Part shown: positions 16,634 through 28,869 of the stretch, one piece after another
How the letters are laid out: each line of letters opens with the position of its first letter
Position numbering within the stretch: the first letter of the stretch is position 1
Source of the DNA: Candidatus Campbelliibacteriota bacterium
Lineage (GTDB): Bacteria; Patescibacteriota; Minisyncoccia; Phycocordibacterales; GCA-2747955
NCBI GenBank assembly: GCA_947311625.1
Contig: CAMZKW010000002.1
Location: 83,013-115,984 of the forward strand
Direction: 5' to 3'
Length of the DNA: 32,972 bases
Notes under the pieces: model-generated
The model's database searches: none
What the model saw: the letters and a program-made list of their open reading frames with translations, nothing else
Told to the model about the DNA's origin: nothing
Translations under genes and position numbers: made by a program

Positions 16634-16963
16634 ATGTTAAATAATATAATATACAGTATATTTTTATTTATTTTAATTCCAGTTATATCTTTTGGATCAG
16701 ATACAGATTTAGATATACCTTTAAAGGAGGATGTTAAAGATGTAGGAACATTGTTAAAAATGATTATAGAGGCAATGCTTGATATAGCGATTCCTATAAT
16801 AGTACTTGCAATAGTTTATGTTGGGTTTTTATTTATAAAGGCCCAGGGAAATGATGGTGAATTAACGAAAGCAAAAGAAGCTTTAACCTGAGTTCTCATA
16901 GGAACTGCAGTTATTATAGGTTCTAATGCTCTTTATCATATATTTTTTGCAGCAATTAAATAA
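16634..16963 (+). CDS. TrbC/VirB2-like pilin-type small membrane protein 1; UGA read as Trp
   Basis: Signal-like N-terminus, two TM segments, LDIAIPIIVLAIVYVGFLFIKAQGNDGELTKAKEALT[W]VLIGTAVIIGSNAL. Confidence 0.75.
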
Positions 16964-16972
16964 TTAATTAAA

Positions 16973-17335
16973 ATGAAAATAAAAAAAAATAAAAAAATAA
17001 TATACTTTTTAAGTTTATGTTTGATAATACCTTTTACTATATTCGCAGCTGATATAAAAGGAATTGAAGATCCAACTGGTGGAATATTGGGGGATAATAT
17101 TAGTGAAACTATAAAAAATATGATAGGTGGATTATTAAAATTAGCAATACCTTTTTTAGTATTAGCTTATGTTTATGTAGCATTCTTATTTGTTAAAGCT
17201 CAAGGAGCAGCTGAAAAATTAAAAGAAGCAAAAAAAGCTTTTGTTTGGTTATTAGTCGGTACAGCCATTATCGTTGGAGCAGATGTAATATTTTCTGTAA
17301 TTAAGGATACTTTAAGTCAGGCAAATATAAAATAA
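16973..17335 (+). CDS. TrbC/VirB2-like pilin-type small membrane protein 2
   Basis: LKLAIPFLVLAYVYVAFLFVKAQGAAEKLKEAKKAFVWLLVGTAIIVGADVIFSVIKD; paralogous to the preceding gene. Confidence 0.78.
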   Translation: MKIKKNKKIIYFLSLCLIIPFTIFAADIKGIEDPTGGILGDNISETIKNMIGGLLKLAIPFLVLAYVYVAFLFVKAQGAAEKLKEAKKAFVWLLVGTAIIVGADVIFSVIKDTLSQANIK

Positions 17336-17341
17336 AAAAAT

Positions 17342-17689
17342 ATGAATAAAAAAATAAAAAAAATAATATTCTTAGTGTTAAGTATTTTAGTTCTTGCAAA
17401 TAATATATATGCAACGACTTTTTCTCAACTGGCACTAAACCTAAGTAATGGATTAATAGCAACAATAACAAAATTATCTTTTGGTTTTGCTGTAATATTC
17501 TTATTTTGAGGTATTTTTAACTTTGTTTCAAATGCATCTGATCAGTCAAAAAGAGAGGAGGGGAAGAAAAAAATTATTTTTGGAGTTATAGCGATATTTG
17601 TTATGGTGTCAGTATGAGGTATTGTGAAAAGTATAACTAGTACAACAAAATTAGATAATTCTCATCTTGAAATAAAATTTATTAAATAA
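17342..17689 (+). CDS. TrbC/VirB2-like small membrane protein 3; UGA read as Trp
   Basis: MNKKIKKIIFLVLSILVLANNIYATTFSQLALNLSNGLIATITKLSFGFAVIFLF[W]GIFNFVSNASDQSKREEGKKKIIFGVIAIFVMVSV[W]GIVKSI. Confidence 0.7.
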
Positions 17690-19021: not shown

Positions 19022-19195
19022 TTTTTTCAACTTCATCAATTGATCTTTTTTAATATTTTTAATTAAATTAGTAAACTAATTTACAAAAAATAGTAAGATA
19101 GTTGTTTAAAAGAAGGTAAATGATAAAAAAACTACTCTAATTCATTTTTTGTAAATTTTAAGTAATCTTGATACAATTTTTCCTGAGCTTTTTTC

Positions 19196-19332
19196 TTTAG
19201 TTGAATAATAACCAAATTCTGCTTTGTGTTTAAAAACCAATTCCCCATTTTTTCTTATTATTATAATAAGTATAACCATCGTTGTTCCAAAAGCTAAATA
19301 ATCAAGTTTTTTATCATAGGCGAATGAGTTTT
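19196..19332 (-). pseudogene. Decayed partial copy of the PRTase/beta-propeller gene (matches about 21188-21320)
   Basis: Encodes FAYDKKLDYLAFGTTMV...RKNGELVFKHKAEFGYYST versus IAYDKKRDLLAFSTTSGWSYILNRKNGELIFKHKAEFGYYST in the intact gene; near-identical nucleotide stretch GAATAATAACCAAATTCTGC. Confidence 0.8.
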
Positions 19333-20337
19333 TTACTTTTCAATTTTATTTAATCAATTCCTAAAAGATGGAGATATTTCTGACATATCAGTAATTGCCT
19401 TGTGCATTAAATCTGGATCGACTTTTCTTTTTCTCTCATTATTCCATAGTATGGCCATTGAAGATTTTTCATTAAATTTCTCAAAATAATCTATATTTTC
19501 TTCCATATTTTGTTTTGCCTTTTCCTTATCACCATCAACTATCCAGTAATAATAAGATGAAAATAATATTCCTCAAGTGGTATGTATATTATTGATCTTA
19601 TTTCGGTATATTTTACAATATTTTTTTTCCCCAATCTTACATAATGCAGCATAAGACATAGATGCTCAATAATCTCCCACCTTTGATTTATAACCTTTTT
19701 TTTCAAATTTTTTATAAATTTCCATATATCTATGAATCCTTTCTATATATTTTTTTTCATTTTTACCAATCAAAATTTGTTTTGCATATCAATGTGAAAG
19801 CATATTAATACCGTATGCTGTTGGTTTTAATTCAATAGATTTTTCATAGATTTTCCTACCAGCTAAAGAATAATCGCCATTAGCTTCTTTTAAAAAATGT
19901 TTCATTTCTGGATACTTATATATAGCTTGTCCAACAAACTCATTTCTGCCTGCATCACAAAAATAATTTCCCAACTTATTAAGAGCACGAACTCTAAATA
20001 GTATAGATACTTTTTTATCGGTTGCATTTTTTATAAACATAGGTAAAACACCTATCATGATTTCTTTATTTAAAAAATAATTATTAGATAAAGTTTTTGC
20101 CATTAAGTCTCTACCTGATGGATCTTTAATATTTTTTATATCCTCCTTTGACATCTTTTTATAAATAGACAATATTTCTTTTGGTGAATATCTTTTTATA
20201 ATTTCAACCTGTTTTTCCTTTTCATCTATACTCCTTATTTTATTTTGATTAGAGATATTTTCAAATTTAAAATGTCATATTATTCAAGACATTATAATTA
20301 AAAATATCATCATTATTATAAATATTATTTTTTTCAT
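19333..20337 (-). CDS. Membrane-anchored/secreted TPR-like helical repeat protein, copy A; UGA read as Trp
   Basis: MKKIIFIIMMIFLIIMS[W]IIWHF N-terminus; internal segment VRALNKLGNYFCDAGRNEFVGQAIYKYPEMKHFLKEANGDYSLAGRKIYEKSIELKP aligns with the 24530 product. Confidence 0.72.
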
Positions 20338-20354: not shown

Positions 20355-20627
20355 TTAAAACATACTGTTGCCATCACTATCATTCATTTCGGCCCCAACA
20401 TCACTGTCGTCATCATCTTCTCCTCCTAATCCTAACTTATTTATACATATTCCATATCTATGGCAATGAGAGTATTCTCAATCATATTCTAGACAACATG
20501 TTCCTCCAGTACTTGGTGCACCAGCTTCAACTTCTTTTGTTATTGTTATCATAAAAACAGTAAATATTAACATAAATAATATAATGATAAAATAACTTAT
20601 TTTTTTTTGTTTTATAATTTTTTCCAT
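20355..20627 (-). CDS. Small secreted Cys-containing peptide, copy A (EVEAGAPS motif); UGA read as Trp
   Basis: MEKIIKQKKISYFIIILFMLIFTVFMITITKEVEAGAPSTGGTCCLEYD[W]EYSHCHRYGICINKLGLGGEDDDDSDVGAEMNDSDGNSMF*. Confidence 0.65.
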
Positions 20628-20647
20628 ATATTTTTTATTATAGTGGG

Positions 20648-20708
20648 TGAAGTGAGTTTATCCCTAAAAAGTGGACACAAATAGGTCTACTTTTTGGGGA
20701 TCACTTCA
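20648..20708. repeat. Long hairpin / imperfect inverted repeat upstream of peptide gene A
   Basis: TGAAGTG-(agttt)-ATCCCTAAAAAGTGGAC - acaaatag - GTCTACTTTTTGGGGAT-CACTTCA. Confidence 0.85.
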
Positions 20709-20786
20709 TGTCACAGCCTGGATCTTAACTTATAATAAATTTATTATAACATATAAAATATAAAAAAAAACAATAACTATTAATTC

Positions 20787-22562
20787 TTAATTACGTTGCC
20801 TTGTTCATTCAAGATATGCTTTATATTCTTCTTTTTGTATTTCTTCAATTTCTTTTTTTATTACTTTATCTGATTTTCTTTTTAGAGCATAAATTTCATT
20901 GGCATAGCTGGGTAGGAAAAATATTTTCGATTTAGGATTGTAAGCAATCGTTCCGGTTATTCTTTCGGAAATTGTTATAAATCCTAATTCCTTTCCGTCT
21001 AAACTTAATTCTGTCAACCTACCGGTATTTGCTCCTATATAAATTTTATCATTAATAATTTTAGGACTTGCAAAAATCCTTGCACCAGAATTTCATTTTC
21101 AAATTTCCTTTTGAATATCTAAATCAATTGCATATAAATTTTTATCCAATGAAGCAAGATATAAAATTCCATCATAAATTAACGGGGTAGAATAATAACC
21201 AAATTCTGCCTTATGTTTAAAAATCAATTCTCCATTTTTTCTATTTAAAATATAACTTCAACCAGAGGTTGTTGAAAAAGCCAACAAATCTCTTTTTTTA
21301 TCGTAAGCAATTGAAGCCTTAATGTCTGTATGTGAAAAACCAGTTAAAATTTCTCCCTCATTTACTTCTTCGGTTTTAAATTCTCATTTTTTTATTCCTT
21401 TTTTTGCATCATAAAGCCTTAATATTCCATCATTGCTTCCAATCACAACTTCTTTTGTTGTTTCAATGAATAACGGGGAAGAGTGGGTAAAAGATGGTGT
21501 AATATCTTTTCAAATAGTCTTACCTGTTTTTAAATCAAAGGCTAAAACACCACCTCTTTTTCTAATTAAGCCAAATTCCAAGCCAATAAATCCTAAACCT
21601 AATTTTTTTGAAATAGTTGGAGACGATCCAATTCAGTCAGCTTCAAAATTTATTCAAACTTTTTTGCCAGTTTCTTTGTTTAAAGCGTATAAATTTCCGT
21701 CATATGCTCCAAAAATTACTAAATTTTTGTAAATAACTGGAGTTGAAAATACACCTTTTCCTTTTGGATGAAAACCAACTTTAAATTTTCATACTACGGA
21801 ACCATCTTTTTGATTTATTGCCCAAAAATATCCAGAATCAGAACCAAAATAAATTTTATTTTCATCTAGGATAGGATTTGATTTTGGAACAACATAATAA
21901 TAATTTGGATTTGGTGCAGAAAATTTTCAAATTGTGTTAAAAGGGTAAGGGGCAGCTTCAAAATCTTTTTCTGTAGTTTTTTTATTTTTTAAACCTAATT
22001 CTTTTTCAAAATCATTTAATTCAAAAATATAATTTATTTTTATATTTTTATTATTAAGATATTCATAAAAATCATTATCCCTTCATTTTAAAATTGCTCA
22101 AACTTCATCAATTTTATATCCTAACTCTTCCAAAACAACAATTTGTCTAATGAAAGACTTACCTGAATTTATAATATCATCAACTAAAATTATTTTTTTA
22201 TCTTTTTCAACAACACCCTCTATCATTCTTAGAAGTCCTGATTTTTTTCTTGACTTTCTAATAAAAAAAGTATTTATATCTTTTTCTCATTGACTAAAAA
22301 TATATTGATTTAAACCAACTGCAAGTGGGATTCCAGCAACTTCCAAAGTCCCTATTTGAAATGGATATTTATTTTTATTTTGCTCTCAAAAAATTTCAGA
22401 AACTAAATTTAAAACTTCTCCTTTCATTAAAACTCTTCTAAAATCAAATAAAAAACCTTTTTCTCTTATGCCGCCCCTACCATCTGAAATATTTTCTTTG
22501 TCTGCAGTAATAAAAACTTCTTCAATAATTATCTTTTTTAATTTTTCTTTTTTTCCATTCAT
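20787..22562 (-). CDS. Orotate phosphoribosyltransferase-like domain fused to PQQ/BamB-type beta-propeller; UGA read as Trp
   Basis: N-terminal TFFIRKSRKKSGLLRMIEGVVEKDKKIILVDDIINSGKSF (OPRTase K-loop and PRPP-binding VDD motif), followed in frame by PQQ-like repeats (IYFGSDSGYFWAINQKDGSVVWKF, VIFGAYDGNLYALNKETGKKVW, VVIGSNDGILRLYDAKKGIKKW, LYLASLDKNLYAIDLDIQKEIWKW). 592 codons including stop, no TAA/TAG interruption. Confidence 0.85.
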
Positions 22563-24102: not shown

Positions 24103-24157
24103 AAATAAAATTTTGTTTTTTCTCTTTTTTTTTGTATAATAATATTATTATAAGTTA

Positions 24158-24180
24158 GGGTGGCGGCTTCGCCGCCACCC
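24158..24180. repeat. GC-rich hairpin (10-bp perfect stem) upstream of peptide gene B
   Basis: GGGTGGCGGC-TTC-GCCGCCACCC. Confidence 0.85.
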
Positions 24181-24197
24181 ACCTAATAAAAAAAAAT

Positions 24198-24527
24198 ATG
24201 AAAAAATACATAAAACAAATAAGCTATGGGGTGGTAGCCTTATTTACTATAATAGGTGGGCTATTCGTAATTACAAATAAAAGTGAGGTTGATGCGGGTG
24301 CACCGTCTCAAAAAAAATGTGATAGTGGGTCCGGCTCAACTCAAACTTGTTCAGATTGAGATGATAAGAATGGAGTTAGACATAATCAAAGAAATAGATC
24401 ATGATATTCATATACTGAAAGGTATATTCCTGGTAATGGTGCTCATTGTCATTACTGATCTTGTTCTGATGATGGCGGTAATGCTGATGGTGGTTCTGCT
24501 GATTATAAAGTTTTTAATGATAAATAA
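24198..24527 (+). CDS. Small secreted Cys-containing peptide, copy B (EVDAGAPS motif); UGA read as Trp
   Basis: MKKYIKQISYGVVALFTIIGGLFVITNKSEVDAGAPSQKKCDSGSGSTQTCSD[W]DDKNGVRHNQRNRS[W]YSYTERYIPGNGAHCHY[W]SCSDDGGNADGGSADYKVFNDK*. Confidence 0.65.
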
Positions 24528-24529
24528 TT

Positions 24530-25579
24530 ATGAAATGATTAATTAGTTTAGTAGGGATTATAGTATTAGGATTTATTTCTTATTTTTTCTATAACCAAAT
24601 AAGTCAGGTCAATCCAGAATTTAGTTTTAAGAACGAAGAAAACATTTCCAATAATAAAAAAAATGAAAATACAAAAAAAGAAGTTTTTGATTATACAGAT
24701 GATTTAAATAAGATTGCTATTAATGAAAAAAAAGCTTCTGAAAAAATTAAATTAATTGATTCTTATGTGAAAGAAGTTGAATCTGTTGATAAAAATTTAG
24801 CTTTAGGTCAGTTAAGATTAAAGGCTAAGATTTTAGGGGATCAAAGAAATGATAAGGCTAAGGTTTTAGAATCAATAAAGCTATGGAAAGAAATTTATAG
24901 AAAGGCTGATCCTGGAACAAGAATAAAAGCAGATGCATTGAGAAGGATCGCTAGAATGTATTGAATAACTGGAGGTGATGAAAATGTTGCTCAAGAAATT
25001 TTTAAAGATAATGACTTTAAAAAATATCTATCAAAAGATAAAACAATCGGTAAATCTTTAATAAATATTTTTAAAGAGTCATATAATATAAAACCAAATT
25101 TAAAATCAGCCTTAGAATTAGTATTTTGATATTCAGAATTAGGAAATAATGAAGAAGGAAAAAAGTGACTTGATATTTATGAAGAAATTAAAAAAGAAAT
25201 AGGGTATTCTTCATTAAGTATGCAGGAGGCGATTACTTTATATAATATAGATAATAAAAAAGAATCCTTTGCTTTATTTGAAAAAATAATAAATGATAAA
25301 CATGAACAGTACTTAAAGGCTTTTCCTCTTGGTTTCTATGCAACTTATTTAAATAAAGAAACAAATAAGGATAGAAATAAAATCAAAGAAATTTTAAATA
25401 AGTTGATGGAAAATATTAAAACCGATCCTAAACCAGAATACAATCAATTTTTGTATTTCTTAAAGGTTCAAGCTAAAAAAGAAAAAAGGGATTTATTGGC
25501 GACTGGTTTAGAAGAATTAGCAAGAGATTATCCAGAATTTAAAACATTTTTAGAAGCTTATGGTTTTAAAGTTAATTAA
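24530..25579 (+). CDS. Membrane-anchored/secreted TPR-like helical repeat protein, copy B; UGA read as Trp
   Basis: MK[W]LISLVGIIVLGFISYFFY N-terminus; helical repeats; ADALRRIARMY[W]ITGGDENVAQEIFKDNDFKKYL resembles copy A. Confidence 0.75.
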
Positions 25580-25585
25580 ATAAAT

Positions 25586-27556
25586 ATGAAAATTTTAAAA
25601 AATAAAAAAATATTTGCTTTATTGGTAGGATTGTTAGTTCTTTTGATTTTATTCTTTCTTTTAAGTCAGAATAAAATTACAAAAAAAGAACTTACCAACC
25701 AGGAAAAAGCAGTAAAGATAGTTCAAGAAGCAGATAAATATTTTGAAAATGCCACTGCAGAATCTTATGATGTTGCTAAGGCAGATGAGTTATATCATCA
25801 AGCACATAAACTTGACACAAATAATGAAAGAGCTTTTTATCAGTTAGTTAGGGTTTATTATGTTCAAGGGGAATTTAATGATGCAAATTCTTATGGAGAT
25901 GAATTTATCAAAAAATTTCCTAACAATGGAAGAATTCATTATATTTTAGGTTTAAATAATGCTTATGCTAGAAATTTAGATAGGGCTGAAAAAGAATTTA
26001 AAGAATTTATAAATTCAAAAGAAGTTGGAGAGGCTGGTTATTTAGATTTGGCTTGGGTGTATTTTAAAAAGGGAGAGTATCAAAAAGCAAAAGAAACTTT
26101 GGAAGCAGGAATTCAAAGATTTGGAGATAATGCTTGATTAAATCTTTCTCTAGCAATGAATAAATTTAATTTAGGGGAAGATAAAAAAGAAGTTTTGGCT
26201 TTGTTAGAAAAAGCAAAAACACAAGCAGAAAAAATTGATGAAAAAATTTGAAAGAGAAATTATTCATCAAATGATCCAAAATCATACAAAGATGATATTA
26301 ATAAATTTAGAAAGATTATTGATCTTAATATAAAACTTGTAAATGGAGAAGATATTTTTGCTGATGTTGTTGGTTTGGATAAAGGATTACAGATTGAAAC
26401 TTTATCCCCAAAAGGTTTAAAGGGTGGTTATACAGTTTCAGCTTGTTGTTCTGCACAAAAAGGGCAGAAGTGTAATGGCCCAGATAATGCTTGCGGTATG
26501 CATATAACTAATGGACAAATAGATTGTTCTGGTAAGTGTTCCATTCTTAAAAAAGCTGATAAATCTTACTGCACAGAAATTCAATTTTGAACTGAAAAAG
26601 TTGATTTATGAGATCAAAAGAAAGAAGTATGTAAAAATATTATCTGGGGAGAGTGAAAAAAAATTCCTGGGCAAGAAAAAGAAAAAAGAATAGGTAATGG
26701 AGAGATGCTAATAAAAGATTATAGACTTCATAATGTTGCACAAAAACAAAAAACTATTACTGGTAAAGAAAAACCTTCAAATATTTCAAATGCAACTAGC
26801 AAAATACATACAGAATTGCCAATTAAAAATTTAGGAGAGAAAAGAGATAAAAATTTAAAAAGTAATAGCAATGCAATAGTTTTTTATACAACATTAGAGT
26901 GTCAGATTGAAGAAGAGAGGCCTACAAATTGTATTTCAGATCATAATTTTAAACCTTCAAGTGATAATGTTTGTAAAGAAGTTAGGTTTGAGCAGCATGA
27001 TAATTGTTGAAATAAAAGATGAGTTAATGGTGATAAAGTTGGATGTACTTGTGGTGATAATTGTGATGATCCGACAGATCCTAGTGATGATGATCCGACA
27101 GATCTAGACGATATTATAAATACTGAAATTCCAATAGTTTTACCAGAACATCCAGTTCAAGAAGAAATTAGTATTGAATCTGGCTGATCATTAGATAATA
27201 TTCATTGAAATTCTTTTGATAAAATTGCATTATTAAAAACATCAAATATAAAAATATATGTTAGAGCTCAACCAAGAGGGGCTTGTTGAAGCAGTGGTTC
27301 GTGGGGAGATATATTTACTTTTAATATAAATAATACTAAAGTTAATGGAGTTGATAAAAGAAATAAATGACTAGGTATAGAAAACATTGTTTCTTTGGAG
27401 GGTGTGAGTACTTCTATTATACTTAAACCAAATTCTCATGCTCAAGAAGGTATTGTATTTTCACAACCAATAAAAAGTAGTTTTTGTGACGGTGCAGGAA
27501 TATCAAATAATGAGTTAAAGGTTAAGATTGTTAATATTATTCAACAAGAAATTTAA
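25586..27556 (+). CDS. TPR protein with N-terminal TM/signal and Cys-rich extracellular C-terminal region; UGA read as Trp
   Basis: MKILKNKKIFALLVGLLVLLILFFLL; TPRs (ADELYHQAHKLDTNNERAFYQLVRVYYVQGEFNDANSY; AGYLDLAWVYFKKGEYQKAKETLEAGIQRFGDNA); VSACCSAQKGQKCNGPDNACGMHITNGQIDCSGKCS. Confidence 0.8.
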
Positions 27557-27597: not shown

Positions 27598-28869
27598 ATG
27601 AATTTTAAAAAAAATTTTTTTTGGATTATTATTTTACTCTTTTTCTATAGTAGTATTATTTTTGCTATAAATCTACAGACATCAACAAATATACCGGTAT
27701 TATATGTGCAGGTTTTTCACAATGGAAAATGAAGTGGCTGGTCTGATCAAGCTGAAGTTTCTAAAGGAGATAAAGTATGATTCCATATTCATTCTTACGC
27801 TAATGGTGGGGATATTAAAAATTTAGTTAATTATTTAGATAATATAAATAATTATTCTTTTTTAAAAAATAATACTCATACTATAGTATCTACTCTAAAA
27901 GCGGCAAATGCTAATAAAATTTCTGGTTCAGTTCAGTTAAAATTTAAGGATAATTTAAAATTTAAATATGCTGGTTATAAATGAGCTACAAAGTTAAAAG
28001 GCCCAAATCCTGAAATAGATCAACATTATAAAAAAGTTCCTTTTGGGCAAAATGGTGATGAGGTTTTAACAAGAGAAGGTGTAAAATTAGGTAATTTAGA
28101 TAAAGATCATAGAAGTAATTTTTTAGTATTTTTCTATTTAGAAGGTGTAGAGCCAGCAATCTCTGGAAATTGTGGTGATATAAAAAATTCTTGTAAAAAG
28201 GGAAAATTTATTGATATTAAAGATGATAATTTTTATTATAAATGAAGATGTTTAGGTCTTAATGGTGGGGAAAATAAAAATTGTGAATTAAGAAAAATCC
28301 CCATGGATGGAGTTTGTTCATCTAAATTTAATAAATGTTTAAAGGGGTATTTTAATGATTTGAAAGATGACGATAAATATTATATATGAAAATGCAATGG
28401 ACTAAATGGTGGTAAATCAGAAGAATGTAAAGTTGAAAAAAAACCAATAAATGGTGTGTGTGGTAGAAGTTTAAATAAGTGCTCCCATGGAAGTTTCTTG
28501 GATATCAAGGACAGTCATGAAAAAAAATTTTGAAAATGTAGAGGGTTATATGGGGGGCAAGATATAAACTGTTCTATACAAAAAATGTGTCCATGTACTT
28601 TAAATAAAGTAACTGATACTTCTAAGATTAATTCATCAACTATTAAAACTAGTGAGTATTCTGATTATGATTTTAAAAAAATATCAGATGAAAATATAAA
28701 ATTAAAATTAGATTTAAAATCTTGTAAAAATCCAAATATTAAAAATATAGTGGATAATTTAAATTATAAGATATGATTAAATTTTAAATTATGACATTGA
28801 ATACTATTAATAATATATACATTAATAATTGTTTTAATAACTAAATTACTATCGAAAAAAAGAAATTAA
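27598..28869 (+). CDS. Secreted/surface protein with three Cys-rich W-x-C-x-G-x-N/Y-G-G repeats and C-terminal TM; UGA read as Trp
   Basis: Signal peptide MNFKKNFFWIIILLFFYSSIIFA; three repeats of the form G(N/V)C...C..G.F.D(I/L)KD....W.C.GL.GG....C; C-terminal hydrophobic helix then KKRN*. Confidence 0.82.

What the first reader, a model, noticed from the sequence alone, without database searches (positions are those of the whole stretch)
24198..24527. Recoding-hidden secreted peptide family with shared EV(D/E)AGAPS processing-like motif
The ORF track reports a different frame (24283-24546). The UGA=Trp frame gives a clear signal-like N-terminus, AGAPS motif and Cys-containing mature peptide matching the peptide at 20355-20627. 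The conserved short motif just after the hydrophobic segment, followed by a divergent mature region, resembles leader/mature organisation of exported peptides such as toxins, pheromones or adhesion factors.
Basis: partly seen in the sequence, partly recalled or inferred. Interest (0 to 1): 0.7.

Follow-up and report, generated by a model that had tools for sequence, protein, structure and literature searches.

The report
Twin secreted peptide–TPR gene pairs
A tiny uncultured bacterium that reads the UGA stop codon as tryptophan carries two diverged copies of a gene pair, each making a small exported cysteine-containing protein and a membrane-anchored helical-repeat partner; the shared "motif" is most likely the ordinary end of an export signal, and the pair's function is unknown.

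Summary
24198-24527(+) is open only when UGA=Trp. It encodes a 109-aa protein whose first 37 residues are 54% identical to the protein on the minus strand at 20355-20627 (BLASTP 2e-11). 0 of 2000 region-preserving shuffles reach that score. UGA=Trp is supported across the window at conserved tryptophans.

EV(D/E)AGAPS looks like the end of a Sec signal peptide, most likely cut VDA|G or VEA|G; "after AGA" would put proline at +1. The mature parts are not significantly alike by standard alignment, though each has four cysteines. It is not a large peptide family: a degenerate motif search of 397 genomes of the order and profile searches of relatives found only these two copies.

Upstream regions are alike too. 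So this is a duplicated two-gene cassette. Copy A heads a same-strand cluster of cysteine-rich exported proteins and a TraD-like ATPase. No database family matches. Toxin, pheromone or adhesin roles remain untested; a surface complex is my best guess.

The parts
24198..24296 (+). Peptide A, signal-peptide-like leader (residues 1-33, MKKYIKQISYGVVALFTIIGGLFVITNKSEVDA)
   Evidence: cleavage point after VDA inferred from the -3/-1 rule
24297..24527 (+). Peptide A, predicted mature part GAPSQKKC... with Cys41, 51, 84, 89 and three TGA-encoded Trp; stop TAA
20523..20627 (-). Peptide B, leader (residues 1-35, ...KEVEA)
20355..20522 (-). Peptide B, predicted mature part GAPSTGGTCC... with Cys44, 45, 55, 61 and an acidic tail; stop TAA
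24530..25579 (+). Partner A: N-terminal transmembrane helix plus TPR-like helical solenoid, 349 aa, starts 2 bases after peptide A
19333..20337 (-). Partner B: paralogue of partner A, 334 aa, starts 17 bases after peptide B
24113..24168 (+). Upstream promoter-like region of cassette A, similar to 20715-20770 on the other strand (56 nt, 75%)
   Evidence: I1
20715..20770 (-). Upstream promoter-like region of cassette B
   Evidence: I1
24158..24180 (.). Perfect hairpin GGGTGGCGG...CCGCCACCC before peptide A; its core is a dispersed intergenic palindrome with 11 copies in the genome
20647..20709 (-). Unrelated long hairpin at the equivalent place before peptide B
24176..24222 (+). 5' untranslated end and start codon region of A, similar to 20603-20649 of B (47 nt, 77%)
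   Evidence: (I3)
25586..27556 (+). Next gene of cluster A: anchored TPR protein with Cys-rich part and a C-terminal domain shared with other exported Cys-rich proteins of the genus
27598..28869 (+). Exported protein with three ~40-residue Cys repeats and a C-terminal transmembrane helix
28897..32034 (+). TraD/HerA-type ATPase (T4SS-coupling-like), last gene of the same-strand cluster
19193..19342 (-). Degenerate fragment of the neighbouring PyrE-BamB-like gene (20787-22562), touching the end of partner B; a sign of local duplication or recombination

Best explanation
The finding is one half of a duplicated two-gene cassette in a UGA=Trp Parcubacteria-type bacterium. Each cassette makes (1) a small protein exported by an ordinary Sec signal peptide, most likely cut by signal peptidase I between VDA/VEA and GAPS, leaving a four-cysteine protein of 76 or 55 residues, and (2) a protein anchored by one N-terminal transmembrane helix with a TPR-like helical solenoid most likely outside the membrane. 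Shown: leader homology, paralogous partners, tight gene linkage, shared upstream regions, four cysteines each. Inferred: export and cleavage site, disulfides, outside topology. Guessed: the solenoid binds its own small protein and holds or assembles it at the surface, in copy A together with the Cys-rich exported proteins encoded downstream; after duplication the small proteins diverged freely while the export signal stayed fixed.
For: Leader similarity far above chance. Paralogous partners: BLASTP 2e-5, z = 9.3, or 8.2 without the membrane helix. Same order and close spacing in both copies. Upstream DNA alike: 56 nt at 75%, 47 nt at 77%. The 21 identical leader residues include 7 synonymous codon changes. 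Partner model: mostly confident helical solenoid past residue 90; best PDB matches are TPR domains, though only E 4e-3 and TMq about 0.4. Cluster A holds two further Cys-rich exported proteins, with gaps of 6 and 41 bases.
Against: No sequence relative found outside this genome, so no conservation test of the pairing. No significant TPR match by sequence. The hydrophobic stretch of peptide B is about 20 residues, so an uncleaved anchor is possible. The disulfide enzyme VKOR was not found in this 93%-complete genome, though one same-genus genome has it; DsbA not tested. No evidence of binding.
Confidence: 0.6

Rival explanations
1. Cognate signal and receptor: the small protein is a secreted pheromone and the TPR partner its receptor, like Phr and Rap, with each copy having its own specificity.
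For: Small exported protein gene directly next to a TPR-type gene, duplicated, with conserved signal peptide and diverged mature part. The TPR regulator Rap of plasmid pLS20 is among the many weak fold matches.
Against: The partner has an N-terminal membrane helix and no output domain. Rap-type receptors are cytoplasmic and bind short re-imported peptides, whereas this mature part has 55-76 residues and four cysteines. The pLS20 match is one of many generic TPR matches.
Confidence: 0.1
2. Exported small toxin (bacteriocin-like) with a membrane-anchored immunity protein, aimed at neighbours or the host cell.
For: Small, Cys-containing, apparently Sec-exported, with an adjacent membrane protein; two diverged pairs.
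Against: No match to any toxin or bacteriocin family in Pfam or NCBIfam. A ~320-residue TPR-like solenoid is not a usual immunity protein. The mature parts are Gly/Asp-rich rather than amphipathic or basic.
Confidence: 0.1
3. The leader is an uncleaved N-terminal anchor, and the peptides are small membrane-tethered surface proteins.
For: Long hydrophobic stretches (17-21 residues), and the neighbouring TPR proteins begin with a similar hydrophobic helix.
Against: Conserved V-x-A-G right after the hydrophobic stretch fits a signal peptidase site; an anchor would need no conserved EV(D/E)AGAPS.
Confidence: 0.15
4. A chance open frame under table 4 with a generic hydrophobic N-terminus.
For: The region is 72% A+T, and signal peptides resemble each other in composition; no relatives found outside the genome.
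Against: Region-preserving shuffles never reach the leader score; the pairing with paralogous partners and the upstream similarity would all have to be coincidence.
Confidence: 0.02

Closest known systems
UGA=Trp code in Patescibacteriota family JAKLIH01 (order UBA6257, class Minisyncoccia; PMC13092985, 2026)
   Same: Patescibacteria-type genome decoding UGA as Trp; no RF2-like match in G000, and only RF1-like ones in G001 and G003; TAA/TAG stops in the window genes checked
Ordinary Sec signal peptide cut by signal peptidase I
   Same: Basic n-region, hydrophobic core, V-x-A at -3/-1
   Different: The sequence identity between two leaders with diverged mature parts is higher than function alone needs; common ancestry explains it
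Rap-Phr (RRNPPA) receptor-peptide cassettes of Bacillota
   Same: Small exported peptide gene beside a TPR-type gene, duplicated and diverged
   Different: Partner here is membrane-anchored and lies downstream; peptide is long and Cys-containing; no sequence similarity found
NVEALA family peptides of Bacteroidota (recalled from memory)
   Same: Short conserved motif after a hydrophobic leader, then a Cys-containing variable part
   Different: No NVEALA hit in Pfam or NCBIfam at E<=1; different phylum and different linked genes

Membership tests
Sec/SPI signal-peptide protein | Basic N-terminus followed by a hydrophobic core | tested here: met
   Hydropathy scan: peptide A peak 2.7 at offset 14, peptide B 3.3 at offset 13
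Sec/SPI signal-peptide protein | Small residues at -3 and -1 of a cleavage site shortly after the core | tested here: met
   Read by eye: VDA|G and VEA|G; AGA|P would put Pro at +1, which signal peptidase I does not tolerate (general knowledge). SignalP not available
Rap-Phr / RRNPPA | Cytoplasmic TPR receptor without a membrane anchor | tested here: not met
   Both partners begin with a ~20-residue hydrophobic stretch; helix in the model of partner A
Rap-Phr / RRNPPA | Sequence match to the receptor family | tested here: not met
   No such match in Pfam or NCBIfam
TPR-repeat proteins (partner genes) | Repeated antiparallel helix pairs forming a superhelix | tested here: inconclusive
   Helical solenoid predicted, best fold matches are TPR domains but none with E<=0.001; no Pfam TPR hit
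NVEALA peptides | Match to the family profile | tested here: not met
   No hit at E<=1
Bacteriocin with immunity protein | Killing activity neutralised by the partner | not testable with these tools
   No profile match; needs a growth assay

The most novel reading that the evidence does not exclude
Two matched pairs of a secreted disulfide-containing protein and its own membrane-held TPR receptor, diverging under selection for specificity, used by an episymbiont for self-recognition or for acting on its host or rivals, and overlooked because standard gene calling breaks the genes at UGA.
Probability: 0.1. Interest if true: 0.65.

Novelty: new member of a known kind. Interest (0 to 1): 0.3.

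Why it matters
It shows that in UGA=Trp Patescibacteria standard gene calling hides short exported proteins, the class most likely to touch the host. It also gives a concrete two-gene unit that can be tested for binding. As it stands it is an orphan paralogue pair of unknown function in one genome.

Tried and rejected
Family beyond two copies: protein, pattern, full and leader-only profiles in the own genome and relatives gave only chance-level hits. The own-genome leader hits at C15 and C2:39470 and the hit in G021 were read and rejected: stops, or other proteins. Partner relatives in genome contigs, phage records and viral contigs: none. Peptide A in plasmids: none. Mature peptide against PDB: nothing significant. 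Structure of the peptide: uninformative, pLDDT 47. The 5' hairpin as a family-specific RNA element: rejected, since its core is a dispersed palindrome with 11 copies mostly beside unrelated genes, and there is no Rfam match. Synteny in relatives through the PyrE-BamB-like gene: the gene was not found in the ten relatives searched.

Full report
WHERE IT LIES. The window is contig 2, 83013-115984, of a 624-kb, 22-contig, about 93% complete genome. The nearest named enolase relative is a 'Candidatus Parcubacteria' contig (65% identity, L042). In-frame TGA is dense and sits at tryptophans that are invariant in known enzymes: DGWG of the phosphoglycerate mutase in L041, FNWKMN and EPVWAIG of triosephosphate isomerase in the relative L042, and the tryptophans of the beta-propeller gene. 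Eighteen window genes end in TAA (16) or TAG (2). An RF2 profile search gives no match in this genome and only RF1-like matches in G001 and G003, while G004 and most genomes of other genera searched have a second, better, RF2-like match. UGA=Trp in one Patescibacteriota family (JAKLIH01) was reported in 2026 (PMC13092985). I could not establish that this genome belongs to it. The recoding is therefore real, but recoding as such in this phylum is already described.

THE OBSERVATION. Under table 4 the frame 24198-24527(+) gives a 109-residue protein with Trp at three TGA codons. The second peptide, 20355-20627, is on the minus strand: 90 residues, one TGA. Their N-termini align over 39 columns with 21 identities. 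Shuffling peptide B's leader within its basic, hydrophobic and c-regions never reached the observed score in 2000 trials (observed 88, maximum 56). None of 16 other hydrophobic N-termini from the contig and a relative scores above 51 with either peptide. Seven of the 21 identical residues use different codons, so the match is not a fresh copy. Beyond GAPS the two proteins do not align above chance with standard gaps (p about 0.34); with cheap long gaps p falls to 0.02-0.12, with a possible TC..DW(D/E)...HCH...C order in both. Both have exactly four cysteines, in different spacing, and Gly/Asp-rich tails.

WHAT THE MOTIF IS. The motif follows straight after the hydrophobic core. V-x-A at -3/-1 followed by G is a good signal peptidase I site. 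The simplest reading is an ordinary Sec signal peptide kept after gene duplication, not a dedicated processing signal.

THE REAL UNIT. Two bases after peptide A starts a 349-residue gene; 17 bases after peptide B starts a 334-residue gene. These are paralogues (BLASTP 2e-5, z = 9.3; still z = 8.2 without the membrane helix). AlphaFold2 from the two-row alignment gives a helical solenoid, pLDDT mostly 75-95 past residue 90. Its closest solved structures are TPR domains, but only at E 4e-3 and low TM-score, so 'TPR-like' is as far as I go. The upstream regions are also alike: a promoter-like stretch of 56 nt at 75% and 47 nt around the start codon at 77%. A degenerate piece of the neighbouring PyrE-BamB-like gene (46 residues, about 70% identity) touches the end of partner B, a trace of local duplication or recombination.

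SURROUNDINGS. Cassette A is followed on the same strand, with short gaps, by a TPR plus Cys-rich exported protein, a protein with three Cys repeats and a C-terminal membrane helix, and a TraD/HerA-type ATPase. The C-terminal domain of the TPR plus Cys-rich protein recurs in exported Cys-rich proteins elsewhere in this genome (L041:6181-7638) and in a same-genus genome (L037). T4SS-pilin-like genes lie within 16634-17689. So the small peptides belong to a larger set of Cys-rich exported proteins in this genus.

HOW FAR IT EXTENDS. In the own genome only two copies were found by protein, profile and degenerate pattern. The pattern was absent from 396 other genomes of the order, full-length and leader profiles found only chance-level hits among relatives, and partner searches in relatives and in the genome-contig collection gave nothing convincing. 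These searches can miss very diverged members, and metagenome contigs could not be scanned.

FUNCTION. Most likely the small protein is exported, perhaps disulfide-bonded, and held or assembled at the cell surface by its anchored TPR-like partner. Only the anatomy is shown; binding and role are inference. Signal/receptor and toxin/immunity readings are possible but have no specific support, and the anchor and lack of an output domain count against the Rap-Phr type. VKOR was not found in this genome but is present in one same-genus genome, so the disulfide question stays open.

VERDICT. A real, recoding-hidden, paralogous pair of exported small proteins within a duplicated two-gene cassette. 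The proposed leader-defined toxin or pheromone family is not supported beyond two copies.

Noticed in passing
24158-24180; G000:C1:4639, C2:47152, C2:66143, C2:81821, C3:8717, C5:40191, C6:19206, C6:28478, C16:11132, C16:13925: A dispersed perfect palindrome (G)GTGGCGGCnnCGCCGCCAC(C) with 11 copies in a genome whose window is 28% G+C, nearly all intergenic, some before genes and some after; one also stands just before the exported Cys-rich gene at L041:6181.
   Followed up: partly
19193-19342: Degenerate fragment of the PyrE-BamB-like gene abutting the end of partner B.
   Followed up: partly
20787-22562: Unusual fusion of an orotate phosphoribosyltransferase-like domain with a BamB/PQQ-type beta-propeller; not found in ten relatives.
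   Followed up: no
25586-27556; L041:6181-7638; L037:146-1720: Shared C-terminal domain ending in V(K/V)..(D/N)I.Q(Q/E)EI-like sequence on exported Cys-rich proteins, with no Pfam match for the L041 protein.
   Followed up: partly
G004 versus G000, G001, G003: Genome G004, listed in the same genus, has an RF2-like match and the others do not: the switch to UGA=Trp may fall within what is classed as one genus.
   Followed up: no
L088:13396-13460: 31-bp perfect stem with a 3-base loop right at the end of a 629-aa exported protein gene.
   Followed up: no
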